A stretch of 34,279 nucleotides of DNA from positions 1-34,279 of the forward strand of contig JAUMYU010000021.1 of the NCBI GenBank assembly GCA_030528485.1, read 5' to 3'. The stretch is from Comamonadaceae bacterium (lineage in GTDB: Bacteria; Pseudomonadota; Gammaproteobacteria; Burkholderiales; Burkholderiaceae_C). A model generated the notes under the pieces. It saw only the letters and a list, made by a program, of their open reading frames with translations. It ran no database searches and had not been told where the DNA came from. Below, one piece after another: positions 408 to 31,255 of this stretch. The stretch's first letter is position 1. Each line of letters begins with the position of its first letter. Made by a program: the position numbers and the translations under genes.

Positions 408-470
408 TTACAAATCAATGAGAAAAGAAAGGCAATTTTTGCAACAATCTCCATTTTCTTTGAATTGCAA
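408..470 (+). repeat. AT-rich intergenic element, shortened copy (63 bp)
   Basis: The left end is TTACAAATCAATGAGAAAA and the right end is TTTGAATTGCAA. It is about 12 bp shorter than the other copies and its core is barely recognisable. Its right end forms a perfect 12-bp inverted repeat with the left end of the next copy (459-470 against 487-498), so the two elements could fold together. The rest of the bioA/transporter gap (224-407 and 562-661) shows no gene. Confidence 0.6.
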
Positions 471-486
471 TCCCATATTCCATGAA

Positions 487-561
487 TTGCAATTCAAAGG
501 CAAAAAAACCACCCTGTTTCGGCTTGATGGCAATCAAGTTGCTTTTCCGATGGTTTGGCAA
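487..561 (+). repeat. AT-rich 75-bp intergenic element
   Basis: This 75-bp copy starts TTGCAATTCAAAGGCAAA and ends GGTTTGGCAA. The core is TTTCGGCTTGATGGCAATC, and its CTTGAT-GGCA-ATCAAG part can form a small inner hairpin. It is one of the most diverged copies at the ends. With its neighbour at 408-470 it is the only case of the element lying between divergent genes. Confidence 0.65.
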
Positions 562-629
562 TGATTGACAGGCCCGCCGCGCTTGCCGCTTTTGACCACT
601 GCCGCCCGCCCGCCCGCTGCAAAGCCCCC

Positions 630-635
630 TACACT
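630..635 (+). promoter_or_regulatory. possible -10 box upstream of the DMT transporter gene
   Basis: The sequence CTACACTCGCCC contains a TACACT hexamer 27 bp before the ATG. A very similar CTACACT followed by CTCGCCC precedes trpE at 19902. No convincing -35 box is visible. A ribosome binding site, GGGAAG, lies at 652-657. Confidence 0.3.
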
Positions 636-661
636 CGCCCCCTTTTGCTCCGGGAAGCACC

Positions 662-1564
662 ATGCACGCGCTTTGGATGGTTCTGGCCACCTTTTTATTC
701 GCCACGATGGGGGTGTGCGTGAAGTTTGCCTCGGCCCATTTCACGGCGGCGGAGATGGTGTTTTACCGCGGGCTGATCGGCATGGCGTTTCTGGGCCTGC
801 TGGCGTGGCGTCAGGGCGTGTCGCTGGCTACGCGCTACCCCGGCATGCACGCCTGGCGCAGCATTGTGGGCGTAGGCGCGCTGGGGGCGTGGTTTTATGC
901 GCTGGGCAAGCTGCCGCTGGCCACGGCGATGACGCTCAATTACATGAGCAGCGTGTGGATTGGCGTGTTCGTCGTCGCCAGCGCGCTGCTGAGCTGGCGG
1001 CCGCGCCCCGGCCAGGCGCGCCCGCCGCTGCACGGCGGGCTGCTGCTGGCGATCATGCTGGGCTTTGTGGGCGTGGCGCTGATGCTGCGCCCCAGCTTTG
1101 CCAGCCAGCAAAGTTTTGCGGCGCTGGTGGGCCTGATCTCCGGCATGCTCGCCGCCCTGGCCTATATGCAGGTGGTGGTGCTGGCGCGCATGGGCGAGCC
1201 GGAAACGCGCGTGGTGTTTTACTTTGCCGCGGGCAGCGCGGGCGCGGGCGCGCTGGTGATGCTGGCCTCTGACGTGCACACGCTGCTCACGCCCGCCGCC
1301 TGGTGGCTGCTGCCCATCGGGCTGCTGGCCGCCCTGGGGCAAATGTGCATGACGCATGCCTACTCCACCGCCGCCAGCGCGCGCAATACGCTGGTCGTGG
1401 CCAGCTTGCAATACTCGGGCATCTTGTTCGCCTCGCTCTACAGCGTGCTGCTGTTTGGGCAAGAGCGCATCGGCCTGTGGGGCTGGGTGGGCGTGGCGCT
1501 GATCGTGCTGGGCGGCCTGCTGGCGACGGTGCTGCGGGCGCGCTCGGCCAAGCCGGCCGGATGA
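662..1564 (+). CDS. DMT superfamily (EamA) transporter
   Basis: The 300-residue protein is almost entirely hydrophobic, with about ten predicted membrane helices arranged as two EamA repeats (roughly residues 3-130 and 145-290), the usual size and architecture of drug/metabolite exporters in the inner membrane. Conserved-looking features are the N-terminal TMGVCVKFAS helix and FYRGLIGMAFLGLL in repeat one, and SARNTLVVASLQYSGILFA in repeat two. The ATG follows GGGAAG by 4 nt. The stop overlaps a possible ATG of the following hydrolase gene (ATGA at 1561-1564), which suggests co-transcription. The substrate cannot be told from sequence; members of this family export amino acids, purines or other metabolites. 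Confidence 0.85.
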   Translation: MHALWMVLATFLFATMGVCVKFASAHFTAAEMVFYRGLIGMAFLGLLAWRQGVSLATRYPGMHAWRSIVGVGALGAWFYALGKLPLATAMTLNYMSSVWIGVFVVASALLSWRPRPGQARPPLHGGLLLAIMLGFVGVALMLRPSFASQQSFAALVGLISGMLAALAYMQVVVLARMGEPETRVVFYFAAGSAGAGALVMLASDVHTLLTPAAWWLLPIGLLAALGQMCMTHAYSTAASARNTLVVASLQYSGILFASLYSVLLFGQERIGLWGWVGVALIVLGGLLATVLRARSAKPAG

Positions 1565-1611
1565 TCCCGCCTCGCGCCCCTGTTGATTTCCCCCCACTTC
1601 CCCGCCCCCCC

Positions 1612-2607
1612 ATGCACCAAGACCCCACCCAACAACCCTGGTGGCCTGAGCTGACGCCGGCCATGCGCGGCGTCGTGCTGGGCATGGCGCGCGCGGCCTT
1701 GCCGCCCATGCACACGCAAACGCCGCAACAAGCGCGCCAAAGCTACAGCCAGGCCGCCCAGGTGCTGGAAGAAAACATGCCGCCGGGCGTGCATTGGCGC
1801 GATGGCTGCCTGCCCGCGCGCGATGGCCATCCCCTGCCCTATCGCCTGTATCTGCCCAGCCCGCCCGGTGCCGCCTGCCCGCCTGCCGCATCGCCGCTGC
1901 CCGCAACGCTGCCGGGCGTGCTTTACCTGCACGGCGGCGGCTTCACCATCGGCGGCATTGGCACGCACGATGTGCTGTGCGCCCGCATAGCCGCAGGCGC
2001 GCAGGCGGCCGTGCTCTCGCTGGAATACCGGCTGGCGCCCGAATACCGTTTTCCCACTGCGGTGGAGGACAGTTGGGACGCCCTGCAATGGCTGGCCCGG
2101 CATGGCCGCGACTGGGGCCTGAACCCGGCGCGCCTGGCCGTGGCGGGCGACAGCGCAGGCGGCACCCTGGCCGCTGTGCTGGCGCTGATGGCGCGCGATG
2201 CGGGCCTGCCGCTGCAAGCGCAATGCCTGATTTACCCCGGCACGACTGCGCACCAGGACACCGCCTCGCACCAGCGTTTTGCCACCGGCCCCGTGCTGAC
2301 CGAGGCGCTTCTCACCTGGTTTTTCCAGCACTACATCGACCGCGCCCAGCGCGAGGATTGGCGCTTTGCCCCGCTGCTGGCGCCCGAGCTGGAGGGCGCT
2401 GCCCCCGCCCTGCTGGTGCTGGCCGAGTGCGATGCGCTGGTGGACGAAGGCATCGCCTACGCCGACCGCCTGCGCATGGAGGGCGTGCCCGTGCAGTTGG
2501 AGCTGTACCGGGGCGTGACGCATGAATTCATCAAAATGGGCCGCGCCCTGCCCGAAGCCGCCCAGGCGCATGCAGCCATCGCCGCCTTTTTGCGCGAGCG
2601 GCTGTGA
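1612..2607 (+). CDS. alpha/beta hydrolase, hormone-sensitive-lipase (family IV) esterase
   Basis: This is a 331-residue cytosolic esterase or lipase. It carries the oxyanion-hole motif HGGGF (residues 107-111), the nucleophile motif GDSAGG with Ser181, and a likely catalytic Asp274 (AECDALVDEG) and His304 (THEF). Together these define the family IV (HSL-like) hydrolases that act on short acyl esters. I chose the ATG at 1612 because MHQDPTQQPWWPELTPAMR looks like a genuine family N-terminus. An in-frame ATG at 1561, overlapping the stop of the transporter gene, would add 17 proline-rich residues and allow translational coupling. Neither start has a clear Shine-Dalgarno. The physiological substrate is unknown. 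Confidence 0.85.
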   Translation: MHQDPTQQPWWPELTPAMRGVVLGMARAALPPMHTQTPQQARQSYSQAAQVLEENMPPGVHWRDGCLPARDGHPLPYRLYLPSPPGAACPPAASPLPATLPGVLYLHGGGFTIGGIGTHDVLCARIAAGAQAAVLSLEYRLAPEYRFPTAVEDSWDALQWLARHGRDWGLNPARLAVAGDSAGGTLAAVLALMARDAGLPLQAQCLIYPGTTAHQDTASHQRFATGPVLTEALLTWFFQHYIDRAQREDWRFAPLLAPELEGAAPALLVLAECDALVDEGIAYADRLRMEGVPVQLELYRGVTHEFIKMGRALPEAAQAHAAIAAFLRERL

Positions 2608-2630
2608 ACGGGGCGCGAGCGTCCAAAAAA

Positions 2631-2705
2631 TTACAAATCAAAAGAAATGAAATACCCTTGTTTCGGCAATATTTAAGGGAATTCAATTTTCCTTTGATAA
2701 AGAAA
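2631..2705 (+). repeat. AT-rich 75-bp intergenic element
   Basis: The left end TTACAAATCAAAAGAAA and the core TTTCGGCAATAT match the family well. The right end, TTTTCCTTTGATAAAGAAA, is diverged. It lies in the convergent gap 24 bp after the hydrolase stop. Its right end forms the U-tract of the terminator of the opposing gene. An inner CCCTT/AAGGG pair flanks the core. Confidence 0.8.
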
Positions 2706-2730
2706 ACCCGCAGCCCTTGCAGACTGCGGG
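2700..2730 (-). terminator. intrinsic terminator of the exported-protein gene
   Basis: Read on the minus strand, CCCGCAG and CTGCGGG form a 7-bp stem with a 10-nt loop, followed directly by TTTTCTTTATC. The T-run is contributed by the adjacent AT-rich element. Confidence 0.75.
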
Positions 2731-2769
2731 CATCCGGGGCCTGTGGCAAGGCCCAAGCCTGCGCGGCGT

Positions 2770-3297
2770 TCAGCGCAAGCGGTTGATTTCGCGCTGAATC
2801 CCCTCGATATCGGCCTGGGTGCGCTCGATATTGGCCTTCAGCTCCGCCGTGCGCTCGATATAGCCTTGCGGGTTGCGCAGCTCCAGCGCCGTGCGCACCG
2901 GCGCGCCGCCGTTGTACTCCTCTTGCAGGGCGCGCAGGCGCTCCTGCGATTTGCGCAGCTCGGCCTGCAAGATGGCGCGCGCATCGGCATCGCGGTCGCG
3001 CTGGGCGTTGTTGGCCACCCGGGGCGCGGATGACGGGGCCGCGCCGTTTGCACGGGGCGCAGACGATGCGGACGCGCCCGCACCGGAGCCGCTGGAAGCG
3101 CTGGCGCGGCGCGGCGCGGAGCTTTGGATGATGGTGACGTTGGTGTCCTCCACCAGGCGGCAATCCTTGCGCTTGGCGGCGCTGGCGGCATTGGTGTACT
3201 CGTTGCCGCAGCGGTACACGCGCTGCTGCGCCAACGCAGCCGTGCCGTACAGCGCCAGCAAAGCCGCACCGAGGTACTTGAGCGATGATGTTTTCAT
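2770..3297 (-). CDS. exported coiled-coil protein of unknown function
   Basis: The 175-residue product begins MKTSSLKYLGAALLALYG and has a signal peptide likely cleaved after ALA at residue 23. The mature part starts QQRVYRCGNEYTN, with two cysteines (C30, C46) that could form a disulfide in the periplasm. It continues through a low-complexity Ser/Ala-rich linker (about 57-95) into a charged helical segment (about 105-175) likely to form a coiled coil. The ATG at 3297 is preceded by AGGA at a suitable distance; longer readings upstream look non-coding. The first third resembles the DUF4124-like exported proteins common in Burkholderiales, but I cannot give it a function. It ends at its own terminator. 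Confidence 0.8.
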   Translation of the reverse strand: MKTSSLKYLGAALLALYGTAALAQQRVYRCGNEYTNAASAAKRKDCRLVEDTNVTIIQSSAPRRASASSGSGAGASASSAPRANGAAPSSAPRVANNAQRDRDADARAILQAELRKSQERLRALQEEYNGGAPVRTALELRNPQGYIERTAELKANIERTQADIEGIQREINRLR

Positions 3298-3485
3298 GGG
3301 AACGTCCTGGATCAATGCGCAAACCCCGCGCCGATGCCATGCACCAACGGGATGCGCCAACGGGCTACGCCAATGCGGGCGGGCAGCGCGGGCGAACCCG
3401 CGCAAAGCAAGGGCCGCTGCCCCCTCCCCCTTCCGTGTTCAATGCGGAAAAATTCTAAACCAGCGCACTTGCGCGGCTGCGCGCT

Positions 3486-3818
3486 TCAGACGGGGGAAAA
3501 ATCCAGCGCCTGGCCGCTTTGCTCCGAGGCAAAACGGTTGAGCAGGGCGAAAAACTCCCCCATGCCTTTGGTGTCTTGCCAGCGGCCTTGCTCGTGTTTG
3601 AAATGAAAGCCCCCTGCGCGCGCGGCCAGCCACACTTCGTGCAGCGGCTTTTGCTGGTTGACCACGATTTGCGAACGGTTGGGGAAAACAATCGTCACCA
3701 TGCCGCCTACGCGCTGGGCGTCCAGGTCGATCTCGGTGGTTTCGGTGATGCGGTCGCAAGCCTGCTCGATCTGCAAAAGCAGGGCATCGGCCAAATCGGC
3801 GTATTCCAGGTCTGTCAT
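3486..3818 (-). CDS. cyaY: iron donor protein CyaY (bacterial frataxin)
   Basis: This 110-residue protein has the full frataxin fold: an acidic first helix ([19 protein letters not shown]), [19 protein letters not shown] on the sheet, and the signature [17 protein letters not shown]. Length and composition match CyaY, a cytosolic protein that binds iron through its acidic ridge and modulates IscS-dependent Fe-S cluster assembly. It diverges from lptM with only 37 bp between the start codons, the same arrangement as cyaY and yifL/lptM in Escherichia coli. No clear Shine-Dalgarno precedes the ATG. The 187-bp gap between this gene and the exported-protein gene downstream holds nothing recognisable. 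Confidence 0.95.
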
Positions 3819-3843
3819 GTCGCTTTCGTTGGGGGCGTCTATT

Positions 3844-3849
3844 TACAAT
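3844..3849 (+). promoter_or_regulatory. possible -10 box for lptM
   Basis: TACAAT lies 6 bp before the lptM ATG, which would place the transcription start on or next to the start codon. No good -35 box is visible, and the 37-bp gap must also serve cyaY in the other direction. Confidence 0.3.
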
Positions 3850-3855
3850 GGCGCG

Positions 3856-4065
3856 ATGCCTTTCTTCGCAGAAATTGTAATTCGCGCCGCTGCGCCACTG
3901 GCCCTGGCAGCCGCTGCGGCCACCGCCCTGGGCGGCTGTGGCCAGACCGGGCCGCTGTACCTGCCCGATGCCACGCCACCCGCGTCCCCCGCATCTGTTG
4001 GCGAACCCGCACCCGCCACCGCGCCCTCGCATGCGCCTTCGCCTGCGGGCGCTGCGGGTTCTTAG
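3856..4065 (+). CDS. lptM: LPS translocon maturation chaperone-type lipoprotein LptM (YifL)
   Basis: The 69-residue lipoprotein has a short alanine-rich signal peptide, the lipobox LGGC with lipidated Cys28, and directly after it the family signature GQTGPLYLP. The remainder is a proline/alanine-rich tail. In E. coli LptM assists disulfide maturation of the LptD-LptE outer-membrane translocon; that role is transferred here by family only. The gene sits between cyaY and lysA, its usual neighbourhood. The chosen ATG has no ribosome binding site, and a possible -10 box lies only 6 bp upstream, so the message may be leaderless. Confidence 0.85.
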   Translation: MPFFAEIVIRAAAPLALAAAAATALGGCGQTGPLYLPDATPPASPASVGEPAPATAPSHAPSPAGAAGS

Positions 4066-4155
4066 CTTTCAAGAGCCTGTTCAAAAAGCCGCCTCAACAA
4101 CTCTGCGGCCACGCCTTGCTGCGTGGCTTTTGTCGTGTTTGCTCCTTCCCCTGCC

Positions 4156-5440
<1,285 letters not shown>

Positions 5441-5454
<14 letters not shown>

Positions 5455-5515
5455 GAAAATAAATGCCTATATTTAGGCAATATGGTATTCAAATTAAATT
5501 TACATTGATTTGTAA
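5441..5515 (+). repeat. AT-rich 75-bp intergenic element overlapping the lysA stop codon
   Basis: This is a complete copy with near-perfect 12-bp ends, TTACAAATCAAT at the left and ATTGATTTGTAA at the right. Hand count gives 15 G or C in 75 bp. The core is ATTTAGGCAATATGGTATT, and GCCTA/TAGGC (5465-5478) makes an inner hairpin. No GC-rich terminator exists between lysA and the convergent flavin reductase gene, so this element is the only structure there. Confidence 0.85.
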
Positions 5516-5535
5516 ACAATCCGACGTCCCCTGCT

Positions 5536-6087
5536 TCACGCCGGCCCTTGCTTGTGCACCCACTGCACAAACGCATGCAGCCATTTGTGCAAGCGCGGGC
5601 GCAGGGTCTCGTCCAAATCGCCCTCGGGGGTGAAGCTGGCCTCGTCGCACTGCACGCAGCGATCAGGCCCCGTCATCAGCACCACGCCTTGTGAGGAAAG
5701 AATGGCGCGCAAATGCTGCTGGGCCACGGCCGCGCCTGCGGGCGCGGGGGAGGCGCCGATGATGGCGCCGGGCTTGTCGAACCACACGCTTTGCCCCGAG
5801 GGGCGCGAGCCGTGGTCGATGGCGTTTTTCAGCGCGGCGGGGATGGAGCGGTTGTGCTCCGGCGTCACAAACAGCAGCCCGTCGGCCTGCGCCACCTGGG
5901 CCTTGATGCGCGCCACCGCCGCGCAAGGCTGGCGCTCCGCATCGCGGTTGAACAGCGGCAAATCGCCCAGCTCCATCCACTCGAACCGCACGCCCGGCGG
6001 CGCCAGGCGCACCAGCGCCTGCGCCAGACGGCGGTTGAGGGATTGGGCGCTCAAGCTGCCCACGATGACGACGATGGTGCGATCCAC
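5536..6087 (-). CDS. NADPH-dependent FMN reductase family protein (ChrR/azoreductase-like)
   Basis: This is a 183-residue flavodoxin-fold protein. It starts with the strand-loop IVVIVGSLSAQSLNRRLA, which binds the FMN phosphate, and contains FVTPEHNRSIPAALKNAIDH, the standard signature of the FMN_red family that includes chromate, quinone and azo reductases. The start is the GTG at 6087, because AAAGGAG lies 8 nt upstream and the protein then begins at the first beta strand. The soluble enzyme probably reduces quinones or electrophiles with NAD(P)H. It diverges from metC and converges on lysA. The exact substrate cannot be inferred. Confidence 0.85.
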   Translation of the reverse strand: MDRTIVVIVGSLSAQSLNRRLAQALVRLAPPGVRFEWMELGDLPLFNRDAERQPCAAVARIKAQVAQADGLLFVTPEHNRSIPAALKNAIDHGSRPSGQSVWFDKPGAIIGASPAPAGAAVAQQHLRAILSSQGVVLMTGPDRCVQCDEASFTPEGDLDETLRPRLHKWLHAFVQWVHKQGPA

Positions 6088-7580: not shown

Positions 7581-7582
7581 TT

Positions 7583-7600
7583 ATTTCCTTTGATTGGCAA
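7583..7600 (+). repeat. half copy of the AT-rich element (right end only)
   Basis: ATTTCCTTTGATTGGCAA matches the right end of the 75-bp family directly beside the terminator hairpin. No left end or core is present, so this is a remnant or solo end. Confidence 0.5.
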
Positions 7601-10422: not shown

Positions 10423-10497
10423 TTACAAATCAAACTGAATTCAATTTCAATACCATCATGCCAAAATAAGGTGATTTGTTTTCTTTTTGATTTGAAA
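10423..10497 (-). repeat. AT-rich 75-bp intergenic element, inverted orientation
   Basis: Read on the minus strand this copy aligns closely with the one behind lysA: the same length, ends TTTCAAATCAAAAAGAAAA and TTTGATTTGTAA, and core TTTTGGCATGATGGTATT. It lies between two co-directional genes, and its A-rich end runs into the terminator of the binding-protein gene. Confidence 0.85.
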
Positions 10498-10522
10498 AAA
10501 GCGGGCTTTTGCCCGCTTTTTT
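10497..10522 (+). terminator. intrinsic terminator after the binding-protein gene
   Basis: GCGGGC (10501-10506), a TTTT loop and GCCCGC (10511-10516) are followed by TTTTTT. An A-run on the left side comes from the AT-rich element, which makes the structure symmetrical. Confidence 0.9.
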
Positions 10523-12227: not shown

Positions 12228-12302
12228 TTACATTTCAAAAGAAAAAAATTCGCCCAATTTCGGCAATACAGACATGAAACTATATTTACCTTGATATGAA
12301 AT
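12228..12302 (+). repeat. AT-rich 75-bp intergenic element
   Basis: The left end is TTACATTTCAAAAGAAA, the core ATTTCGGCAATACAGACAT and the right end TTACCTTGATATGAAAT. It sits in the convergent creD/serB gap, 50 bp beyond the GC-rich terminator. The remaining bases of that gap show nothing else. Confidence 0.75.
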
Positions 12303-12354
12303 ACAAGTTTTGATCCGCTTCATTGCCCGCCGCGCAGGGATTTTGAACAGGCCC

Positions 12355-13068
12355 TCAAGGCTGCACCACTTCCAGCAAGCGATCCAGCCCGCCCTGGTTG
12401 ATGCTGACCTTGGCCACCGAGCGCACGCGCGGTTTGGCGTGGAAGGCCACCGACAGGCCCACGGCCTGCATCATGGGAATGTCGTTGGCGCCATCGCCTA
12501 CGGCGATGACCTGCCCGGGCGCAATGCCCATGAGCGAGGCCAAATCCAGCACCGCGCGACGCTTTTCTTCGCCATCGCAGATATCGCCCCAGGATTGGTC
12601 GCGCATGCGGCCGGTGAGCACGCCGCCCTCAACCTCCAGCCAATTGGAGCGAGAAAAATCCAGCCCCAGGCGCGCTTTGACGCGATCGGTGAAAAAGGTG
12701 AAGCCGCCCGAGACCAGCAAGGTTTTCAGCCCGGCCTGCTGGCACGCCTGCACCAACTCCTGCGCGCCCGGCGTGAGCGCGACGCGCTGGGCGTAAACCT
12801 GCTCGAGCTGCTCCAGCGTCACGCCCTTGAGCAAAGCCACGCGCTGGCGCAGGCTTTCCTTGTAATCGGCAATCACGCCTTGCATGGCCGCTTCGGTGAT
12901 GGCGGCCACTTCGGCTTTTTTGCCCACCACGTCGGCAATCTCGTCCACGCACTCGGAAGTGACCAGCGTGGAGTCCATATCAAAAGCGATGAGGCGAAAG
13001 TCCTTGAGCGACAGCGGCGGCGTGATGCCATTGATTTCCAGGCCAGCGGCCCATTCCTGTTTGTTCAT
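12355..13068 (-). CDS. serB: phosphoserine phosphatase
   Basis: SerB is a HAD-superfamily phosphatase that converts phosphoserine to serine in the cytosol. The 237-residue protein has motif I DMDST (Asp30 nucleophile, Asp32 acid/base), motif II in LLVSGGF (Ser120), a lysine in motif III near residue 212-220, and motif IV GDGANDIPMM (191-200). It lacks the N-terminal ACT domains of some SerB proteins, so it is the short form. The ATG at 13068 was chosen because the reading upstream crosses the pntB terminator. It is co-oriented with the pnt operon but separated from it by that terminator. Confidence 0.93.
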   Translation of the reverse strand: MNKQEWAAGLEINGITPPLSLKDFRLIAFDMDSTLVTSECVDEIADVVGKKAEVAAITEAAMQGVIADYKESLRQRVALLKGVTLEQLEQVYAQRVALTPGAQELVQACQQAGLKTLLVSGGFTFFTDRVKARLGLDFSRSNWLEVEGGVLTGRMRDQSWGDICDGEEKRRAVLDLASLMGIAPGQVIAVGDGANDIPMMQAVGLSVAFHAKPRVRSVAKVSINQGGLDRLLEVVQP

Positions 13069-21617: not shown

Positions 21618-22718
21618 ATGAACAACGACGAAATCCGCGCCATCCTCATCATCAGCCTGCTGGCCGCCTACGCCGACAGCGAAAAACACGCCCGCGAGCG
21701 CGAGGAAATCCGCCGCATTGCCGAGGGGCTGGTGCAAACGCCCGAAATCAACCTGCCCGGCCTGTACCAGGACGTGCTGCTCAAGCGCATCACCCTGGAC
21801 GACGCCGTGCAGGCCCTGCCTTCGGAAGAAGGCCGCCATCTGGCCTACGAAATGGCCGTGTGCGTCTGCGATGCCGACGACATCACCAGCGCCAGGGAAC
21901 AAGCGTTTCTGGACACGCTGCGCGAAAAGCTCGGCCTCGACCAACGCTTTGCCCACGATGCCTTCGAGCAAACGCAAGCCCTGGCCCAGGCGCCGCTGCA
22001 AACGCCTGAGGCTGCGCCCGCAACAACACCCGTTGCCGCGCCAACCGCCAACCCCGCCCTGGCCAACGCCATCGTGATGGGCGCGGGCATGACCGCTGGC
22101 GCAGCCGCCAGCGCCATCACCGGCGCGCTGACGCCCGCCCCCGCCCCGCACCCGCAACTGCCGCCTGTCCCCGCCGCCTCGCGGCGCAACAGCACCCTCG
22201 GCACCGCCGAGATGGACAGCAAAATCCTGCGCGCCGCCATCCTCAACGGCGCCATCGAACTGCTGCCCGAATCGCTCTCCACCATGGCCATCATTCCGCT
22301 GCAAATGCGCCTGGTGTACCAAATCGGCCAGAGCTACGGCTACGAGCTGGACAAAGGCCACATCCGCGACTTTCTCGCCACCATCGGCGTGGGCATGACC
22401 TCGCAATACCTGGAGCAAGCCGGGCGCAAGCTGCTCAAAGGCTTGCTGGGCAAAGCCGGCAAAGGCTTGTTGGGCGGCCTGGGCAAACAAGCCGTCAGCT
22501 CGGGCATGAGCTTTGCCTCCACCTACGCGCTGGGGCATGTGGCCAATCAGTACTACGCAGGCGGGCGGGCGCTTTCGGCGCAAATGCTCAAGGATGCGTA
22601 CCGCCACGTCCTTGGCGATGGCCGCACGCTTTACAACCAATACCTGCCCCACATGCAAGAGCAGGCTCGGGGATTGGATGCCAGCAAAATCCTGGCGCTG
22701 GTACGCGGCCAGGGCTGA
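21618..22718 (+). CDS. TerB-like/DUF697-like domain protein
   Basis: The 366-residue protein has an acidic helical N-terminal domain (about 1-115; IIISLLAAYADSEKHAREREEI is its key helix region) resembling the TerB fold. A Pro/Ala-rich linker (about 118-195) contains a small hydrophobic patch. The C-terminal domain (about 200-340) reads AAILNGAIELLPESLSTMAI, then MRLVYQIGQSYGYELDKGHI, then glycine-rich GKGLLGGLGKQAV, as in DUF697/YcjF-type membrane-associated domains. AAGGAG precedes the ATG by 8 nt. It starts 83 bp after trpE and may be co-transcribed with it, though a functional link is not obvious. The biochemical role is unknown; envelope or tellurite-type stress is only a family-level suggestion. 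Confidence 0.75.
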   Translation: MNNDEIRAILIISLLAAYADSEKHAREREEIRRIAEGLVQTPEINLPGLYQDVLLKRITLDDAVQALPSEEGRHLAYEMAVCVCDADDITSAREQAFLDTLREKLGLDQRFAHDAFEQTQALAQAPLQTPEAAPATTPVAAPTANPALANAIVMGAGMTAGAAASAITGALTPAPAPHPQLPPVPAASRRNSTLGTAEMDSKILRAAILNGAIELLPESLSTMAIIPLQMRLVYQIGQSYGYELDKGHIRDFLATIGVGMTSQYLEQAGRKLLKGLLGKAGKGLLGGLGKQAVSSGMSFASTYALGHVANQYYAGGRALSAQMLKDAYRHVLGDGRTLYNQYLPHMQEQARGLDASKILALVRGQG

Positions 22719-22737: not shown

Positions 22738-22778
22738 GCAAAGGCCGCCCGGCATACCGCCAGCGGCCTCTTTCATTT
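22738..22778 (+). terminator. intrinsic terminator after the TerB-like gene
   Basis: GGCCGC (22743-22748) pairs with GCGGCC (22763-22768), with an inner CGG-CATA-CCG hairpin in the loop. The T-rich tail TCTTTCATTTC is the start of the adjoining AT-rich element. Confidence 0.7.
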
Positions 22779-22848
22779 CAATCAAAATAAAAACTATTCT
22801 ATACCCACATTGACAAAACAGTATGGTTTTATTTCCTTTGAAATGTAA
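22774..22848 (-). repeat. AT-rich 75-bp intergenic element, inverted orientation
   Basis: Read on the minus strand it starts TTACATTTCAAAGGAAATA and ends ATTTTGATTGAAATG. The core TTTTGTCAATGTGGGTAT is more diverged than in other copies. It lies between the TerB-like gene and the convergent tRNA gene. Confidence 0.75.
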
Positions 22849-22964: not shown

Positions 22965-23040
22965 TGGCGCGGCTGGCGGGGATCGAACCCACGACCCTTG
23001 GCTTCGGAGGCCAATACTCTATCCACTGAGCTACAGCCGC
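22965..23040 (-). tRNA. tRNA-Arg (anticodon CCG)
   Basis: The 76-nt sequence folds as a standard cloverleaf. The acceptor stem is GCGGCTG/CAGCCGC, the D arm GCTCAGTGGATAGAGT, the anticodon stem TTGGC/GCCAA with loop CTCCGAA, and the T arm GTGGG-TTCGATC-CCCGC; the CCA end is encoded. The anticodon CCG reads the arginine codon CGG. A GATAAT -10 box lies upstream and a strong terminator downstream, so it is a single-gene transcript. Confidence 0.97.
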
Positions 23041-24119: not shown

Positions 24120-24197
24120 AAAAGGGTTTTGGCATAATCGCCGCCCCCGCCCAAAGGCCCGCAGGAGGCCCGGCGACAAACCCGGTCCGATCACCCC

Positions 24198-25056: not shown

Positions 25057-27447
25057 ATGGCACAACGATTCGATGCGGCCGCCCTGGTCGTCCCGTTTGA
25101 GAACCTGAGAATGAGCGACGTCGAAGTCGTAGGCGGCAAAAACGCCTCGCTCGGCGAAATGATTTCCCAACTGCCCCAGGGCGTGCGCGTGCCCACGGGC
25201 TTTGCCACCACGGCGCATGCTTTCCGCGAATTCCTCAAGCACGGCGGCCTGGCCGAAAAAATCAGCCAGCGCCTGGCCGCGCTGAATGTGGACGACGTGC
25301 GCGCCCTGGCCGAAGCGGGCGCCGAGATCCGCCACATGGTCGAGTCCCAGCCCTTTGCGCCCGAGCTGGAAAAAGCCATCCGCGATGCCTTTGCCGCACT
25401 CAGCGCAGGCAACGATCAGGCTTCATTCGCCGTGCGCTCCTCGGCCACGGCCGAAGACCTGCCCGACGCTTCGTTCGCTGGCCAGCAGGAGACTTTCCTG
25501 AACGTCGTCGGTATTGAAGACGTGCTGGCCAAGACCCGGGAAGTCTTTGCCTCCCTCTACAACGACCGCGCCATCAGCTACCGCGTGCACAAAGGCTTTG
25601 CGCACGATGTCGTCGCCCTCTCGGTCGGCGTGCAGCGCATGGTGCGCTCGGACAAAGGCGCCGCTGGCGTGATGTTCACCATCGACACCGAAAGCGGCTT
25701 TGACCAGGTCGTCTTCATCACCGCCAGCTATGGCCTGGGCGAAACCGTGGTGCAAGGCGCCGTCAACCCCGACGAGTTTTACGTGCACAAGCCCGGCCTC
25801 AAAGCCGGTCGCCAGGCGCTGATCCGCCGCAACCTTGGCTCCAAGCTGATCCAGATGGTGTTCTCCTCGCCCGAGGAAAAAGCCGCTACCGGCAAGCTGG
25901 TGCAAACCGTGGACGTGCCCGCCGAAATGCGCAACCGCTACGCCCTCACCGACGCGGAAGTGCATGAGCTGGCCCGCTACGCCCTCATCATCGAAGAACA
26001 CTACGGCCGCCCCATGGACATCGAATGGGGCAAGGACGGCGCCGACGGCCAGCTCTACATCCTGCAAGCGCGCCCCGAAACCGTCAAAAGCCAGCAGAAA
26101 GACAAAGCCGAGCAACGCTACAAGCTGCTGGGCACCGGCCCCGTGCTCAGCGAAGGCCGCGCCATCGGCCAGAAAATCGGCACCGGCCCGGTGCGCCTGG
26201 TCAACGACATCGCCGAAATGGAGCGCGTACAGCCCGGCGACGTGCTGGTGACCGACATGACCGACCCCAACTGGGAACCCGTGATGAAACGCGCCAGCGC
26301 CATCGTCACCAACCGTGGCGGGCGCACCTGCCACGCCGCCATCATTGCGCGCGAGCTGGGCATTCCCGCCGTCGTCGGCTGCGGCGACGCCACGGCCAAG
26401 CTCAAGGACGGCACGCTGGTCACCGTCAGTTGCGCCGAGGGCGACACCGGCCGCATTTACGACGGCCTGCTGGAAACCGAAGTCACCGAAGTGCAGCGCG
26501 GCGAAATGCCCGCCATCGACACCAAGATCATGATGAACGTGGGCAACCCGCAACTGGCCTTCGACTTCGCCCAACTGCCGGGCGATGGCGTGGGCTTGGC
26601 GCGGCTGGAGTTCATCATCAACAACAACATCGGCGTGCACCCCAAGGCCATCCTGGACTATCCCAACGTCGATGCCGACCTCAAGCAAGCCGTGGAAAGC
26701 GTGGCGCGCGGCCACGCCAGCCCCCGCGCCTTTTACGTCGATAAAGTCGCCGAAGGCGTGGCCACCATCGCTGCCGCCTTCTGGCCCAAGCCCGTCATCG
26801 TGCGCCTGTCGGACTTCAAGAGCAACGAATACCGCAAGCTCATCGGCGGCAGCCGCTACGAGCCGGAAGAAGAAAACCCCATGCTGGGCTTTCGCGGCGC
26901 GGCGCGCTACATCAGCGAGGACTTCGGCCCCGCCTTTGCGATGGAGTGCGAAGCCCTCAAGCGCGTGCGCGACGACATGGGCCTGACCAACGTGCAAGTC
27001 ATGGTGCCCTTCGTGCGCACGCTGGGCCAGGCCGAGCGCGTGACCCGGCTGCTGGCCCAGCACGGCCTGGAGCGCGGCGTCAACGACCTGAAGGTGGTGA
27101 TGATGTGCGAGGTGCCCAGCAACGCCATCCTGGCCGACCAATTCCTGCAATTCTTCGACGGCTTCTCCATCGGCTCCAACGACCTGACCCAGCTTAGCCT
27201 GGGGCTGGACCGCGACAGCGGCATGGAGCTGCTGGCTGCCGATTTCGACGAGCGCGACCCCGCCGTGCAAGCCCTGCTGCAACGCGCCATCGGCGCTTGC
27301 AAGGCCCAGGGCAAATACGTCGGCATCTGCGGCCAAGGCCCCAGCGATCACCCCGACTTCGCCCAATGGCTGGCCCAGCAAGGCATTTCCTCCATCTCAC
27401 TCAACCCCGATAGCGTGGTAGAGACCTGGAAAAAGCTGGCCGAGTGA
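25057..27447 (+). CDS. ppsA: phosphoenolpyruvate synthase
   Basis: PpsA makes PEP from pyruvate and ATP (giving AMP and Pi), the entry to gluconeogenesis. The 796-residue protein has the N-terminal ATP-grasp domain ([35 protein letters not shown]), the swivelling phosphohistidine domain ([19 protein letters not shown] with His426) and the C-terminal PEP/pyruvate barrel ([37 protein letters not shown] with Cys758). GGAG lies 7 nt before the ATG. The 223-bp gap upstream holds no gene, and the ppsR regulatory kinase/phosphatase gene that often diverges from ppsA in this group is absent here. A strong hairpin follows. Confidence 0.96.
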
Positions 27448-27470
27448 GGCAAGCCAGCCCATCGGCATAG

Positions 27471-27507
27471 GCAACACAAAGCGGGCCTTGCGCCCGCTTT
27501 GTGTTGC
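27471..27507 (+). terminator. terminator hairpin after ppsA
   Basis: Arms of 16 bp pair perfectly (GCAACACAAAGCGGGC at 27471-27486 with 27492-27507) around a CTTGC loop. The core GCGGGC/GCCCGC is followed by TTTGTGTT, and the AT-rich element begins at the next base. Confidence 0.8.
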
Positions 27508-27582
27508 AAAATCAATCAAAAGAAAACACCAATCAATACCAAATTGCCGAAATATCGATATTATTTTTCTTTTGATTTGTAA
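27508..27582 (-). repeat. AT-rich 75-bp intergenic element overlapping the 3' end of a minus-strand gene
   Basis: On the minus strand the left end TTACAAATCAAAAGAAAAA, the core ATTTCGGCAATTTGGTATT and the right end TTTTCTTTTGATTGATTT match the family closely. It follows the ppsA hairpin directly and supplies the last codons and stop of the convergent gene. Confidence 0.85.
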
Positions 27583-28124
27583 TTTTGAGTGCCAGGCTTG
27601 GCCGCGGGCTTTTCCTTGGCACGCTCAAAATGAAAGGGCGCGGAAACCGCGCATGGCTGCCATAGCTGCATGTGCACCAAGCCTTGGCCTGACATGCGCG
27701 AGGGGCTGAGCACGCGCAGCTCGTATTGCACATCCAGGGGCAGCGCCAGGCCCTGCACCTGCACACCCCGGGCGCTGGCGATGAAGTGGTTGGGGCCGCG
27801 CTGTTGCCATTGCACGCCTGGGTGCCCAAGCAGTTGCGCAGGGTGAAAGGGTTTTTGAAAGCCGATGTGCTCCCCTCTTTGCTGCGGCAACAGGCGCTGC
27901 AAAGCCTCCACCAGGCCAGGCATGCAGGTGGCGCTGGCCTGGGCGCTGCCCATGTCCCAGCGCCAGTAACCGTCTTGCGGCTGGATGCGGCGCTCCGCTT
28001 TGGCGGAAGCGGGGGATGGGCTTGGCTGCGCAGGCTGGCTGCGCGCGCCGCTGGCCTGGGCCGATCCCCAGGCGCTACACATCAAAGCAAGAGCGATCAA
28101 ACCCAAGCGCAGCAGCGTCTTCAC
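27561..28124 (-). CDS. exported protein of unknown function
   Basis: I do not recognise this family. The 187-residue protein has a signal peptide (LLRLGLIALALMCSAWGSAQ, cleavage after AQA near residue 24), a short Pro/Ser/Ala linker, and a folded part of about 130 residues. That part includes DGYWRWDMG, CMPGLVEALQRLLPQ and VQYELRVLSPSRMSGQGLVH, with a pair of cysteines that could form a periplasmic disulfide. Start GTG 28124 has AAGGAG 9 nt upstream. The last residues, NYKSKEK, and the TAA are encoded by the AT-rich element, so the original C-terminus was probably replaced. It lies 95 bp downstream of lspA, likely in one transcript. Confidence 0.7.
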   Translation of the reverse strand: MKTLLRLGLIALALMCSAWGSAQASGARSQPAQPSPSPASAKAERRIQPQDGYWRWDMGSAQASATCMPGLVEALQRLLPQQRGEHIGFQKPFHPAQLLGHPGVQWQQRGPNHFIASARGVQVQGLALPLDVQYELRVLSPSRMSGQGLVHMQLWQPCAVSAPFHFERAKEKPAAKPGTQNYKSKEK

Positions 28125-28219
28125 GGCGGATTTCTCCTTCAAAAAACGGCACAAAAAGCGGCACCTAAAACAGCACCCCAAGCGGCAAAGAGGTCGGGGG
28201 CCTGCCCCAGGCGCTGCGC

Positions 28220-28792
28220 TCAGCTCTCAGGCTGCTGCCCCGCGCCATGCGCTGACAAGGCTTGCTGCCGACGCTCCTCGCGCCAGCGTTGCCACTCCAC
28301 CAGCAGCATACCGATCACGCCTGCGGTGATCGCCATGTCGGCCAGGTTGAAGGCGGGAAAGTGCCGGCCCGCCCAGTGGAAATCCAGGTAATCCACCACA
28401 TAGCCGTAGGCCAGCCGGTCGATCGCATTGCCAATGGCCCCGCCCAGTATCAGCGTCAAGGCCAGGGCGAACAGTTTGTGCTGCCCGTGGCTGCGCAGTT
28501 GCCAGATGAGAAAGGCGCTGGCGATGGCGGCGATGCCGACGAAAAACCAGCGCTGCCAGCCACCGTGCCCGGCCAGAAAGGAGAAAGCCGCGCCGGTGTT
28601 GTGCACGCGCACGAAGTTGAAAAAACTGGTGATGGCAGAGGAATGGCCCCAAGCGTAGTTCTGCACGATCCAGAGCTTGAGGCCCTGATCGAGCACGACC
28701 AGCACCAGGGCCAACAGCAACCAGCGCCACAAGGGCGCGCGGTGGGGCTGAGGGCTGGGAGCGGAAGGGGGGAAGGCGGCTGGCGGCGTCAC
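28220..28792 (-). CDS. lspA: lipoprotein signal peptidase (signal peptidase II)
   Basis: LspA is the inner-membrane aspartyl protease that removes the signal peptide of diacylglyceryl-modified prolipoproteins. The 190-residue protein has four membrane helices and the family motifs [34 protein letters not shown] with Asp125, and [11 protein letters not shown] with Asp152, the two catalytic aspartates. The start is GTG 28792; the first 20 residues are a proline-rich extension. It would process the lipoproteins LptM and BamE-like encoded in this window. The usual neighbour ileS is not upstream; instead a gap of 487 bp follows scpA. Confidence 0.95.
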
Positions 28793-28890
28793 GGGCGCAT
28801 CTCGGCAAAAAAACGGCGCACCTTAGCACATCTTCCCCATCGCCCCGGCCTGTGCGCCCTGGCAGGCCGAGGGCTTTTCCAATCCATTGT

Positions 28891-28965
28891 TTACAAATCA
28901 ATAGGAAACAAAATTAACTTATTTAGGCATATCAGAAATGAAATCATTTTTCCATGTATGGAAAA
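28891..28965 (+). repeat. AT-rich 75-bp intergenic element upstream of lspA
   Basis: The left end TTACAAATCAATAGGAAAC and the core ATTTAGGCATATCAGAAAT are clear. The right end, TTTTTCCATGTATGGAAAA, is diverged and now makes its own short hairpin (TTTTCCATGTATGGAAAA). It lies between scpA and lspA, both on the minus strand. Confidence 0.7.
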
Positions 28966-29113
28966 TAAGCTACCCGTCCACAGGGGGCATTCATCGTGCC
29001 CTCACACAGATTTCGACAGCACTTCATGAAGCAGCGCCATGCTTGGGCGCTTCAAGCTCCACGGCCAGGCCCTGCCGCGTGCAGCCGTGGAACCCACATG
29101 CTTTCGGATTGCC

Positions 29114-29290
29114 ATGCCCCATACCTTGTCTTCGCCGCCCGCCTGGCCCTTGCCCTCTCCCTCCGCTTGCACCGCGCCAAGTGCAAGGCCAAACACTACG
29201 CCCAGCGGCGCGCGGCTGTGGCAGCAGTCGCTGCACGCACTGCTGGCCCGCCACCGGGCGCGGCAACAACGCCAACGCTTTACGCGCTGA
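29114..29290 (+). CDS. possible small ORF converging on scpA
   Basis: In the 487-bp gap between lspA and scpA a 58-codon plus-strand reading ends with an arginine/glutamine-rich helix (LWQQSLHALLARHRARQQ) whose third positions are strongly G/C. It overlaps the end of scpA by 11 nt. No good ribosome binding site precedes it, and the first half looks non-coding, so it may be chance or a decayed gene. Nothing else was seen in the remainder of the gap. Confidence 0.2.
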   Translation: MPHTLSSPPAWPLPSPSACTAPSARPNTTPSGARLWQQSLHALLARHRARQQRQRFTR

Positions 29291-30260
29291 ATGCGTCCGC
29301 AGCAGGCTCTGGCGACGCTGCGCCTTCTTGCTCCAGGCGCGCCTGCTCGGCAAGCTCGGCAGGATCGGCCTGATGGCGCACGACGACGTAAATCGGCGCA
29401 AACGCCTCGGCCTGGGTGATTTCAATCAGCGTTTCCTTGGCCAGCTCCAGCATGGCGATGAAGGTGACGACCAGCACCGGCAGCCCTTGGCGGGGGTCGA
29501 ACAAATCCTCAAACGGCACGTAGGGCTTGCCGCGCAAGTCGCGCAGCACCTGGCTCATGAACTCGCGCACGCTGAGTTTTTCGCGCGTGATGGTGTGGTG
29601 CGCCACCAGCTTGCTGCGCCGCACAATGGCCAGCCAGGCGCGGCGCAAGTCCTCCGGCTCCACATGCGGCAGCACGGGCGCCAGCCCCAGATCGAAATGC
29701 GCATGCGGCAGCCAGAAATCGCGCCCTTGCTGCGGCAGCGCATGCAGGGCCTGGGCGGCGAGCTTGGTTTTTTCGTACTCCAGCAGGCGGCGCACGAGCT
29801 GGGCGCGCGGGTCTTCGGCCTCCTCCTGCTGCACGGCTGGCGGGCGCGGCAGCAGCATGCGGGATTTGATTTCGATGAGCATGGCCGCCATCAGCAGGTA
29901 TTCGGCCGCCAGCTCCAGATTGCGCTCGCGGATTTCCTGCACATAACCCATGTACTGCTGCGTTAGCGGCACCATGGGGATGTCGAGGATGTTGAAGTTT
30001 TGCTTGCGGATGAGGTAGAGCAGCAAATCCAGCGGGCCTTCAAACGCCTCCAGAAACACCTCCAGCGCATCGGGCGGGATGTACAAATCGGCGGGCAGCT
30101 CGAACAGCGGCTCGCCATACAGGCGCGCCAAGGCCGCAGCCTGGGCCACATCGGCGGCATCTTCTCCCTCTGGCGCTGGTACTGGCGCTGGCTCAGGTTC
30201 CGGCCCGGACTCTGGCGCCTGCATGGCCACAGCCTCCAGCGCGGTTTGCTCTTGTTGCAC
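29280..30260 (-). CDS. scpA: segregation and condensation protein A
   Basis: ScpA is the kleisin subunit of the bacterial SMC-ScpAB condensin. The 326-residue protein has an acidic Pro/Glu-rich N-terminal tail, then the SMC-binding start FEGPLDLLLYLIRKQNFNIL, DIPMVPLTQQYMGYV, and the helical EYLLMAAMLIEIKSRMLLP, all hallmark blocks. The C-terminal winged-helix region includes PYVPFEDLFDP and VVTFIAMLELAKETLIEI. The start is GTG 30260; the first 50 residues are poorly conserved in the family, so a start further in cannot be excluded. It follows the DUF3460 gene by 37 bp in the same direction. scpB is not in view. Confidence 0.94.
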   Translation of the reverse strand: MQQEQTALEAVAMQAPESGPEPEPAPVPAPEGEDAADVAQAAALARLYGEPLFELPADLYIPPDALEVFLEAFEGPLDLLLYLIRKQNFNILDIPMVPLTQQYMGYVQEIRERNLELAAEYLLMAAMLIEIKSRMLLPRPPAVQQEEAEDPRAQLVRRLLEYEKTKLAAQALHALPQQGRDFWLPHAHFDLGLAPVLPHVEPEDLRRAWLAIVRRSKLVAHHTITREKLSVREFMSQVLRDLRGKPYVPFEDLFDPRQGLPVLVVTFIAMLELAKETLIEITQAEAFAPIYVVVRHQADPAELAEQARLEQEGAASPEPAADAFSA

Positions 30261-30297
30261 AGGCGCTTGCGCTGCTCAATGGCCTGCCGCCTGCGGC

Positions 30298-30510
30298 TTA
30301 TTCGGCATCCGGGTTGGTTTGGTACACATACGGCTTTTGCGCCACGCGGCCCGCCTGATACTCCTGCCACAGCTTGCGATCAACCAACTTGTCCCACAGC
30401 AAATTGCGGCCTGCTTGCTGCTGCGCATCCAGGTGCGGGCGCTCGGCTTTGAGGTTGTCGATGAACTGGGTCGCTTCGGAGGTGTAGTGGGGGCGTTGGA
30501 AGAATGACAT
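30298..30510 (-). CDS. DUF3460 family small protein
   Basis: The 70-residue soluble protein, beginning MSFFQRPHYTSEATQFIDNL and ending AQKPYVYQTNPDAE, has the features of DUF3460, a small conserved family of betaproteobacteria usually found immediately upstream of scpA. It is charged, largely helical (LKAERPHLDAQQQAGRNLLW), with no signal peptide. Function is unknown. The ATG at 30510 was chosen because an alternative start further upstream would add a low-complexity lead without similarity. It diverges from the BamE-like gene across 119 bp. Confidence 0.85.
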   Translation of the reverse strand: MSFFQRPHYTSEATQFIDNLKAERPHLDAQQQAGRNLLWDKLVDRKLWQEYQAGRVAQKPYVYQTNPDAE

Positions 30511-30629
30511 AGACTCTTGCTGTAAGTGAGACGGGGCGGCTGGCAAACGCGCCAGATACGCCCTTTTTTGCAGCCTTCGCGCTGCTTTTTGGCGGTCTTT
30601 GGCAGTTTTTTGGCAGCCCTTGGCAGCCG

Positions 30630-31178
30630 ATGAAAACGGGGATTTTAGCGGTGGACACACACACAAACTCAGGCTGGGCGCTGGCCCTGGCCATCCTCTT
30701 TGTCGCCGTGATTGTGGCGCTGGCAGGCTGCGATCCGCTCGCGCTGGAAAAGCTCAAACCCGGCCAATCCACCGAGGCCGACGTGCGCGACGCCATGGGC
30801 ACGCCGGAGATGATTTGGGACGAGGGCCAAGGCGTGCGCACCTTCGAATACAACCGCCAGCCCGCCGGGCGCGTCAACTACATGCTGACGCTGGGCGCCG
30901 ACGGCAAACTGCAAGCCATCCGCCAAGTGCTCACCGAGGCCGAATTCGCCAAAGTGCAACCGGGCATGCATTACGACCAGGTGCGCCGCATGCTGGGCAA
31001 ACCGGCCAAGGATGTGTGGTACCCGCTCAAACGCGAACATCATGTGGATTGGCGCTACCTGAAAACGCCCACCGATTCGGCCATGTTCACCGTCGTGCTC
31101 GACGCCAACCGCATCGTGCTGCGCTCAGCCACGGGAGTGGATATGGATGAGGAATACCGCTCGGGCGGACGCCGGTGA
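30630..31178 (+). CDS. BamE/SmpA-like outer membrane lipoprotein
   Basis: The 182-residue lipoprotein has a hydrophobic signal (ALALAILFVAVIVALAGC) with the lipobox LAGC and lipidated Cys34. The mature part holds two copies of the BamE-like fold: KLKPGQSTEADVRDAMGTPE (about 41-60) with FEYNRQP, and a second one, KVQPGMHYDQVRRMLGKPA (about 107-125), followed by DWRYLK. Such domains bind other outer-membrane proteins; one-copy BamE is part of the BAM complex. The two-copy form is a separate lipoprotein family, so I do not call it bamE. The ATG 30630 lacks a good ribosome binding site; a GTG 7 codons later is possible. An AT-rich element begins 2 bp after the stop. Confidence 0.82.
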   Translation: MKTGILAVDTHTNSGWALALAILFVAVIVALAGCDPLALEKLKPGQSTEADVRDAMGTPEMIWDEGQGVRTFEYNRQPAGRVNYMLTLGADGKLQAIRQVLTEAEFAKVQPGMHYDQVRRMLGKPAKDVWYPLKREHHVDWRYLKTPTDSAMFTVVLDANRIVLRSATGVDMDEEYRSGGRR

Positions 31179-31180
31179 TT

Positions 31181-31255
31181 TTACAAATCAAAGGAAACAA
31201 AATACCCTTTAATTGGCTTGATGGTCAAAGTATCCAATTTCCTTTGATTTGATTA
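31181..31255 (+). repeat. AT-rich 75-bp intergenic element
   Basis: This is one of the best copies: a perfect 14-bp inverted repeat, CAAATCAAAGGAAA (31184-31197) with TTTCCTTTGATTTG (31238-31251), around AATTGGCTTGATGGTCAAAG. It starts 2 bp after the BamE-like stop and ends 12 bp before the convergent AraC gene. No GC-rich terminator is present in this junction. Confidence 0.85.

What the first reader, a model, noticed from the sequence alone, without database searches (positions are those of the whole stretch)
408..31255. Family of AT-rich, 75-bp intergenic elements with inverted ends and an asymmetric core
Nine intergenic sequences can be laid over one another at 75 bp each (487-561, 2631-2705, 5441-5515, 10423-10497, 12228-12302, 22774-22848, 27508-27582, 28891-28965, 31181-31255), with single-base indels. 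A shorter copy lies at 408-470 and a half copy at 7583-7600. All share a left end near TTACAAATCAAAAGAAA, a core near TTTCGGCAATATGGTATT and a right end near TTTCCTTTGATTTGTAA. Two hand-counted copies are 20% and 29% G+C inside a clearly GC-rich chromosome. The conserved length in both orientations implies a defined unit, such as a non-autonomous MITE or a REP-like element. I do not know a named family with this consensus. At roughly one copy per 3 kb there could be over a thousand in a genome.
Basis: seen in the sequence. Interest (0 to 1): 0.8.

Follow-up and report, generated by a model that had tools for sequence, protein, structure and literature searches.

The report
Selected 75-bp intergenic DNA elements
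Two closely related bacteria carry about 600 copies of a 75-base DNA unit, mostly just after genes, whose key letters have been kept by selection at the same places; it looks like a protein-docking site rather than a dead mobile element, but the protein is unknown.

Summary
The family fills the host genome: 551 end-motif hits against 7 for a reversed control, and 161 elements in 670 kb, about 570 per genome by extrapolation. G009, identified as Allofranklinella schreckenbergeri NML 97-0147, is equally dense. Eight other genus members have 0-3 matches.

The MITE reading is not supported. Of 55 sites with a homologous flank in hand, 52 are occupied in both genomes, none is empty, 3 are unresolved. 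No target duplication, recent copy or convincing larger partner was found. Between the two genomes the four best-kept motif blocks changed by 2.8% (21/743), flanks by 13.2%, spacers by 20-26%. Both ends show one degenerate half-site logo and hardly covary; strand relative to genes is random (105/101). This points to double-stranded DNA read by a protein.

Best reading: a lineage-specific, roughly 600-site docking element, mostly behind genes. Protein and role are unknown. An uptake signal under molecular drive, an RNA hairpin, or a very old MITE remain possible.

The parts
408..470 (+). short element (12-nt internal deletion), beside the next copy
   Evidence: 36.1 bits; orthologue G009 C28:29840-29911 has the 12 nt
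487..561 (+). element, 75 bp
   Evidence: 57.8 bits; shared with G009, 2 differences
2631..2705 (+). element, 75 bp, 23 nt after the end of ORF 1612-2607
   Evidence: 58.9 bits; shared with G009
5441..5515 (+). element, 75 bp; the ORF 4156-5454 runs 14 nt into it
   Evidence: 58.6 bits; shared with G009
7583..7600 (-). lone half-site beside an intrinsic-terminator-like hairpin
   Evidence: 31.7 bits; G009 C28:37047, with similar flanks, is also a lone half-site (33.1 bits)
10423..10497 (-). element, 75 bp, directly before a terminator-like hairpin (about 10498-10522)
   Evidence: 60.6 bits; shared with G009
12228..12302 (+). element, 75 bp, between convergent ORFs
   Evidence: 56.7 bits; shared with G009
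22774..22848 (-). element, 75 bp, between ORF 21618-22718 (+) and tRNA 22968-23040 (-)
   Evidence: (53.8 bits); shared with G009
27508..27582 (-). element, 75 bp, between convergent ORFs (the called ORF 27561-28142 (-) runs 22 nt into it), directly after a terminator-like hairpin
   Evidence: (57.6 bits); shared with G009
28891..28965 (+). element, 75 bp
   Evidence: 53.2 bits; shared with G009
31181..31255 (+). element, 75 bp, between convergent ORFs, 2 nt after ORF 30630-31178
   Evidence: 59.3 bits; shared with G009

Best explanation
Each unit is a composite DNA-binding site. It has two inverted copies of one degenerate half-site (WWWW TTnYMWWTCAAa-RGGAAA) with their TCAA/TTGA ends about 60 bp apart, and an asymmetric core TTTnGGCA between them. 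SHOWN: the anatomy; an extrapolated 570-630 copies per genome in two related genomes and no comparable density in the other genomes searched; conserved position at orthologous loci; constraint on half-sites and core but not on spacers; indifference to strand and gene context; enrichment just behind stop codons and between convergent genes. INFERRED: the sites are read in double-stranded DNA by a sequence-specific protein that engages both half-sites together. They were spread by a copying burst in the stem of this lineage, are no longer mobile, and are kept because the bound complex matters. The most likely role is chromosome structure or topology at the ends of transcription units, as gyrase- or GapR-type factors act where positive supercoils gather. 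The protein is not identified.
For:: in 52 orthologous pairs T1T2 changed 0/86, TCAA 6/204, TTTT 5/208, TTGAT 10/245; within TTTnGGCA half of the changes (16 of 32, of 416) fall on the free n; spacers changed 136/672 and 245/936; the first four blocks, picked as the best kept, together 21/743 against 483/3654 in noncoding flanks, p 5e-20; motif G/C positions 11/306 against spacer G/C 65/260, p 4e-14; left and right half-sites give nearly the same logo; arm columns hardly covary, and RNAalifold predicts no pair; strand relative to genes 105/101; 3 of 367 inside called genes; density per noncoding kb 3.57 convergent, 1.46 co-directional, 0.50 divergent; motif score does not depend on context (p 0.63, 0.35, 0.14); more gaps hold an element than random placement gives (z 3.8-5.9 in convergent and co-directional gaps, none in divergent); 703 of 734 element-strand combinations hold a half-site of 13 bits or more, while hits outside elements number 96 (reversed sequence, elements included: 270).
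Against: No binding protein was found. HU/IHF copy number is ordinary. The single H-NS-like protein differs in its DNA-binding domain (KVPPRF, where the other eight genomes have KVxxKY or HVxxKY) but nothing links it to the sites. Other motif parts are less well kept: positions 3-7 38/245, 13-18 23/306, 70-75 31/259. Pairing between arms of one element is slightly above chance (z 3.3), with G-T mismatches somewhat commoner than A-C (104 against 77), which a pure protein site does not need. Location behind genes is also where parasitic repeats are tolerated (PMC3049150, passages). A/T tracts are not phased with the helix, which speaks against a simple curved-DNA role. The topological role rests on position alone.
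Confidence: 0.5

Rival explanations
1. DNA uptake signal kept by molecular drive: the sites are what the transformation machinery prefers, so intact copies are re-imported by recombination.
For: Neisserial DUS behave alike in one respect: 97% conserved within about 85% identical DNA, and placed in permissive parts of the core genome (PMC2397512, abstract and passages). Here the best motif blocks are 97% and flanks 87% identical. Element-free intervals over 10 kb have lower coding scores (0.328, n 23, against 0.420, n 297; p 3e-5) and lower mean G+C (0.610 against 0.650). Segments carrying elements probably moved into G005. It would explain conservation without 600 separate functions.
Against: DUS are 10-12 nt, a single one suffices, and they also lie in genes (PMC2397512, passages); here paired half-sites and a core at fixed spacing are nearly always present and 3 of 367 lie in called genes. 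At least one element-free interval may be a long operon rather than an island (inference).
Confidence: 0.15
2. RNA-level element: a transcribed 3' hairpin that stabilises or processes messages, or a bidirectional terminator.
For: Elements lie a median of 21 nt behind the upstream stop codon in co-directional gaps. Arms of one element pair slightly better than swapped arms (11.10 against 10.66, z 3.3; outer 11 bp z 2.2; mean energy -14.2 against -12.5 kcal/mol for one swap; G-T mismatches 104, A-C 77). Three variant loci hold a GC-rich terminator hairpin between the half-sites.
Against: Base identity rather than pairing is conserved (C at position 9 has frequency 1.00 as printed in 347 left half-sites; 2 of 51 pairs differ there). 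Arm changes are nearly independent. No consensus structure, although that alignment is gap-rich. Terminators are about as frequent with as without an element: G009 convergent 0.45/0.37, co-directional 0.19/0.19; G000 0.49/0.48 and 0.13/0.27. Score is the same in divergent gaps.
Confidence: 0.15
3. Very old MITE family, now inert; conservation is incidental.
For: Inverted ends, small AT-rich non-coding unit, convergent-gap enrichment as for pneumococcal repeats (PMC3049150, passages). A burst explains how a 75-bp unit got to about 600 places.
Against: Position-specific constraint since the split of G000 and G009. No duplication, empty site, recent copy or convincing partner. An old duplication could have eroded.
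Confidence: 0.15

Closest known systems
REP/BIME elements
   Same: high-copy, palindromic, mostly between convergent or co-directional genes and close to 3' ends (PMC3733652, passages)
   Different: REPs are 20-40 bp hairpins with a GTAG or CGTC tag, the GTAG kind with RAYT transposases (PMC3733652); here 75 bp, two spaced half-sites plus core, neither tag in the consensus, no Y1 transposase found in G000/G009
MITEs and other small repeats such as RUP, BOX, SPRITE (Correia/NEMIS and ERIC recalled)
   Same: small interspersed units; RUP and SPRITE are also AT-rich and enriched between convergent genes (PMC3049150, passages)
   Different: no target duplication, polymorphism or partner seen; constraint on motif positions after insertion. 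For SPRITE too no duplication or empty site could be established (PMC3049150, passages)
DUS/USS uptake sequences
   Same: lineage-specific, high-copy, motif far better conserved than flanks (PMC2397512, abstract and passages)
   Different: 10-12-nt motifs of which one suffices, also in genes; here a 75-bp three-part unit outside genes
GapR targeting of convergent gene ends
   Same: same places along the genome: 3' ends and convergent gaps (PMC8360656, passages)
   Different: GapR reads overtwisted DNA rather than a 75-bp motif; no binding shown here. A link with gyrase is taken from a listed abstract (PMC8510090) and recall

Membership tests
MITE | terminal inverted repeats, short, non-coding | tested here: met
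MITE | target-site duplication | tested here: inconclusive
   336 elements, offsets 0-25: mean z per offset 0.2-1.3, single positions up to z 5.0 scattered without a run; a duplication could have eroded
MITE | presence/absence differences between close genomes | tested here: not met
   157 G000 elements: 102 without homologue in hand; of the other 55, 52 shared, 0 empty, 3 unresolved. Reverse, 195 G009 elements: 139 without, 48 shared, 0 empty, 8 unresolved
MITE | larger autonomous relative with the same ends | tested here: inconclusive
   no pair of two strong half-sites 100-5000 bp apart in 1.59 Mb; four weak pairs listed. The rest of the genomes was not scanned for this
REP | 20-40 bp with GTAG or CGTC tag | tested here: not met
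   74-76 bp in 325 of 336; consensus has neither tag
REP | RAYT (Y1) transposase in the genome (GTAG kind) | tested here: not met
   PF01797: 0 matches in G000 and G009, matches in 5 of the other 8; G000 is 80.5% complete
REP | location at 3' ends and between convergent genes | tested here: met
DNA uptake signal | motif much better conserved than flanks | tested here: met
DNA uptake signal | single short motif, also without a partner | tested here: not met
   half-sites are nearly always paired: 296 of 427 inward pairs at 59-61 bp, few strong lone ones
DNA uptake signal | raises DNA uptake | not testable with these tools
   needs an assay
RNA hairpin element | compensatory pair changes | tested here: not met
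   no RNAalifold pair in 10 sequences or in a gap-rich alignment of 94 (7 of them opposite-strand duplicates); a few column pairs above shuffles and a small same-element excess
intrinsic terminator | takes the place of other terminators | tested here: not met
   similar terminator frequency with and without element in three of four comparisons; G000 co-directional 0.13 with, 0.27 without

The most novel reading that the evidence does not exclude
One bacterial lineage has recently gained a genome-wide set of about 600 three-part, 75-bp sites for an unknown DNA-binding system (a new chromosome-organising or DNA-import machinery). Selection or drive now keeps the sites in place, which would make this a case of an architectural code arising within a single genus.
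Probability: 0.3. Interest if true: 0.85.

Novelty: new variant of a known kind. Interest (0 to 1): 0.62.

Why it matters
High-copy bacterial repeats are usually read as selfish or inert. Here the letters that matter can be told from those that do not, by comparing the same 52 places in two genomes, and the answer is clear constraint on a fixed three-part design. The family is dense in two of the ten genus genomes held, so its origin, its reader and its cost can be studied by comparison with near relatives that lack it.

Tried and rejected
RNA hairpin: the impression of compensating arms from a few copies did not survive the count over 195 G009 elements; a small same-element excess remains.

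Terminator replacement: rejected as the main role.

Insertion-sequence targeting: I read four roughly 1-kb differences near elements in G009 as gene or repeat insertions or deletions, not insertions into elements (read from the sequence, not annotated).

Curved DNA: A/T tracts are less phased at 10-11.5 bp than block-shuffled sequence (z -4.3 to -6.5; -1.3 at 9.5).

Replication polarity: 172 with, 183 against the G-rich strand (p 0.60).

HU/IHF expansion: 3 copies in G000, G009 and six others, 2 in G003, 0 in the incomplete G008.

Helical-turn spacing classes: only a hint (21 of 427 inward pairs at 68-72 bp; a further 41 at 42-44 bp, which I put down to an internal TTGA), not claimed.

Phages: 7 weak partial matches, best E 0.05. 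Viral contigs: 0 with an exact strict pattern. Plasmids: none for 161 bp around one element.

Genes were called by my own codon-usage script, not a published caller; starts and small genes are rough. Orthologous gaps and elements of G000 and G009 are counted in both genomes.
Full report
What was given.

Check. All coordinates hold. A sequence-only model of ten copies scores them at 36-61 bits, by construction. Rfam has nothing for them. In the host genome (G000, 2.36 Mb, 132 contigs, 80.5% complete) the end motif with up to two mismatches has 551 hits against 7 for the reversed control. An iterated profile gives 161 elements in 670 kb of G000 and 206 in 920 kb of G009. That is one per 4.2-4.5 kb and, by extrapolation, about 570 and 630 per genome. 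The stretches were chosen from large contigs.

Where it occurs. In 60 genomes (G000 and 59 relatives) only G009, of the same genus, also has the motif in mass (229+228 hits, control 1+3). The next highest is an order-level relative with 26 hits and 12 in its control. Among the ten genus genomes held, the eight others have 1-6 hits of a stricter form. With the model at E 0.01, G001, G002, G003, G004 and G006 have no match, G005 has 3, G007 1 partial and G008 1 (at most 150 first-look candidates per genome were scored, so counts are lower bounds and G000 and G009 reach the cap). The two G005 loci lie in DNA that is 94% identical to G009 and 91% to G000 (L046 region) or 98% to G000 and 89% to G009 (L037 region), above the 70-87% of most other aligned G005 segments, so they were probably transferred. 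The listed flank matches of the G008 copy show no such closeness, and that copy is unexplained.

Age and mobility. The window is syntenic with G009 C28:29426-63780 at 94-95% identity. Of 157 G000 elements above 20 bits, 102 have no homologous flank in hand; of the other 55, 52 are occupied in G009, none is empty and 3 are unresolved. In the other direction (195 G009 elements, 56 with a flank), 48 are shared, none is empty and 8 are unresolved. No locus with both flanks had decayed beyond recognition in the forward test, so the pairs are not a selected remnant; one or two pairs at tandem elements may be mispaired. The nearest paralogue in hand is 76% identical at the median and 89% at most. No consistent left/right identity that would mark a target duplication was seen for 336 elements (mean z per offset 0.2-1.3, scattered single positions up to 5.0). 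After this much divergence a duplication could have eroded. No pair of two strong half-sites 100-5000 bp apart was found in 1.59 Mb; four weak pairs were listed.

Selection. In the 52 orthologous pairs the position-wise changes are very uneven: T1T2 0/86, TCAA 6/204, TTTT 5/208, TTGAT 10/245, positions 13-18 23/306, TTTnGGCA 32/416 (16 of them at the n), positions 3-7 38/245, 62-64 24/156, 70-75 31/259, but spacers 136/672 and 245/936. Noncoding flanks, aligned with gaps, changed at 483/3654 (13.2%; without gaps the nearest flank bases differ far more often), and four-fold sites of 74 genes at 1201/13447 (8.9%). The four best-kept blocks, picked after seeing the counts, changed at 21/743 (p 5e-20 against flanks). 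G/C letters in the motif changed at 11/306 against 65/260 for G/C letters in spacers. Indels are rarer inside elements (11 of 52) than in 59-nt noncoding flank windows (18 of 42; p 0.03). The base next to the left end keeps its A/T-or-G/C class in 50 of 51 pairs. These are the marks of continuing purifying selection, or of a drive that mimics it, on a DNA motif.

Anatomy. Left and right ends give nearly one half-site logo, WWWW TTnYMWWTCAAaRGGAAA, with the same preferred letters: C or T at position 4, A or C at 5, A or T at 7. The left end is stricter. 703 of 734 element-strand combinations hold a hit of 13 bits or more. Hits outside elements number 96, against 270 in the reversed sequence (elements included), although 12 of the 96 exceed 25 bits. 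Inward pairs stand 59-61 bp apart in 296 of 427 cases at 12 bits. Six inverted pairs have another interior, about 10 bp longer, three of them a GC-rich terminator hairpin. The paired half-sites therefore seem to be the invariant part, and the core TTTnGGCA the rule.

DNA or RNA. RNAalifold finds no pair in 10 sequences or in a gap-rich alignment of 94 matches. Column pairs across the arms are mostly independent, with a few exceptions such as 5-71 and 14-63. Arms of one element match slightly better than swapped arms (11.10 against 10.66, z 3.3, 186 elements), and G-T mismatches (104) exceed A-C (77). This small excess speaks a little for pairing and is told as such. The strand of the element is random to genes (105/101) and to the G-rich strand (172/183).

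Context. 361 of 367 elements were assigned to a gap, 3 lie inside called genes and 3 were not assigned. Gaps of 85 bp or more, element included, hold an element in 99 of 151 convergent, 193 of 513 co-directional and 30 of 183 divergent cases. In co-directional gaps 148 of 206 are nearer to the upstream stop (median 21 nt against 90 nt). More gaps are occupied than random placement gives (for example G009 convergent 59 against 42.3, sd 2.8), but not among divergent gaps. Motif score does not depend on context. Terminators are about as frequent with as without an element in three of four comparisons. Where gene order is kept in element-poor G007 (43 gaps, 6 with element), one locus seen in both G000 and G009 keeps the terminator that G007 has, behind the element. 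Genes followed by an element have higher coding scores (0.431, n 329, against 0.347, n 423). Element-free intervals over 10 kb have lower coding scores and mean G+C, although at least one may be a long operon (inference).

Interpretation. The simplest account of same-place conservation, matching degenerate half-sites, fixed spacing and strand indifference is a double-stranded DNA site read by a protein that holds both half-sites. The role in chromosome structure or topology is inferred from position: positive supercoils gather at 3' ends and between convergent genes (PMC8360656, passages). The position has a duller reading too: repeats are tolerated there (PMC3049150, passages), and REPs sit there (PMC3733652, passages). 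The strongest rival is an uptake signal under molecular drive, since neisserial DUS show the same contrast of a conserved motif in permissive core DNA (PMC2397512, abstract and passages). Its single short motif does not fit the paired design. The reader protein is open: HU/IHF number is normal, and the lone H-NS-like protein of G000 and G009 has an altered DNA-binding domain, which is a lead only.

Novelty. No paper on repeats in this genus was found under the searches, which cover only the open library. I file it as a new variant of the known kind 'small interspersed bacterial repeat', set apart by demonstrable constraint after spread.

Noticed in passing
window 31277-34279: 96-97% identical to G007 C1:750204-753206 and G005 C1:552473-555487 while other G005/G007 segments aligned to the window are about 70-87%: recent transfer or recombination
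   Followed up: no
window 12313-12357: part of another dispersed family (GGGATTTTGAACAGGCC) with several copies in G005, G007 and G008; GCCTGTTCAAAA-type words are enriched in G007 intergenic DNA
   Followed up: partly
G009 C1:287936-289056 (in L033): a repeat of about 853 bp with three further copies at about 94% identity, IS-like, next to a 238-bp repeat with ten further copies at 93-97% in the DNA held
   Followed up: no
L186, L199: the only H-NS-like protein of G000/G009 has KVPPRFMN in its DNA-binding domain where the other eight genus genomes have KVxxKY (HVAPKY in a second G004 copy)
   Followed up: partly
L155 1705-1765 (G008 C261): one canonical element in a genome that otherwise lacks the family, in DNA whose listed matches do not point to transfer from the element-rich lineage
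   Followed up: partly
L155 1-55: a roughly 55-bp repeat at 83-100% identity with dozens of copies across G000, G005, G007, G008 and G009
   Followed up: no
G000 C33:64790, C75:23786, C80:18985: half-site pairs that frame a GC-rich terminator hairpin instead of the usual core, about 10 bp longer
   Followed up: partly
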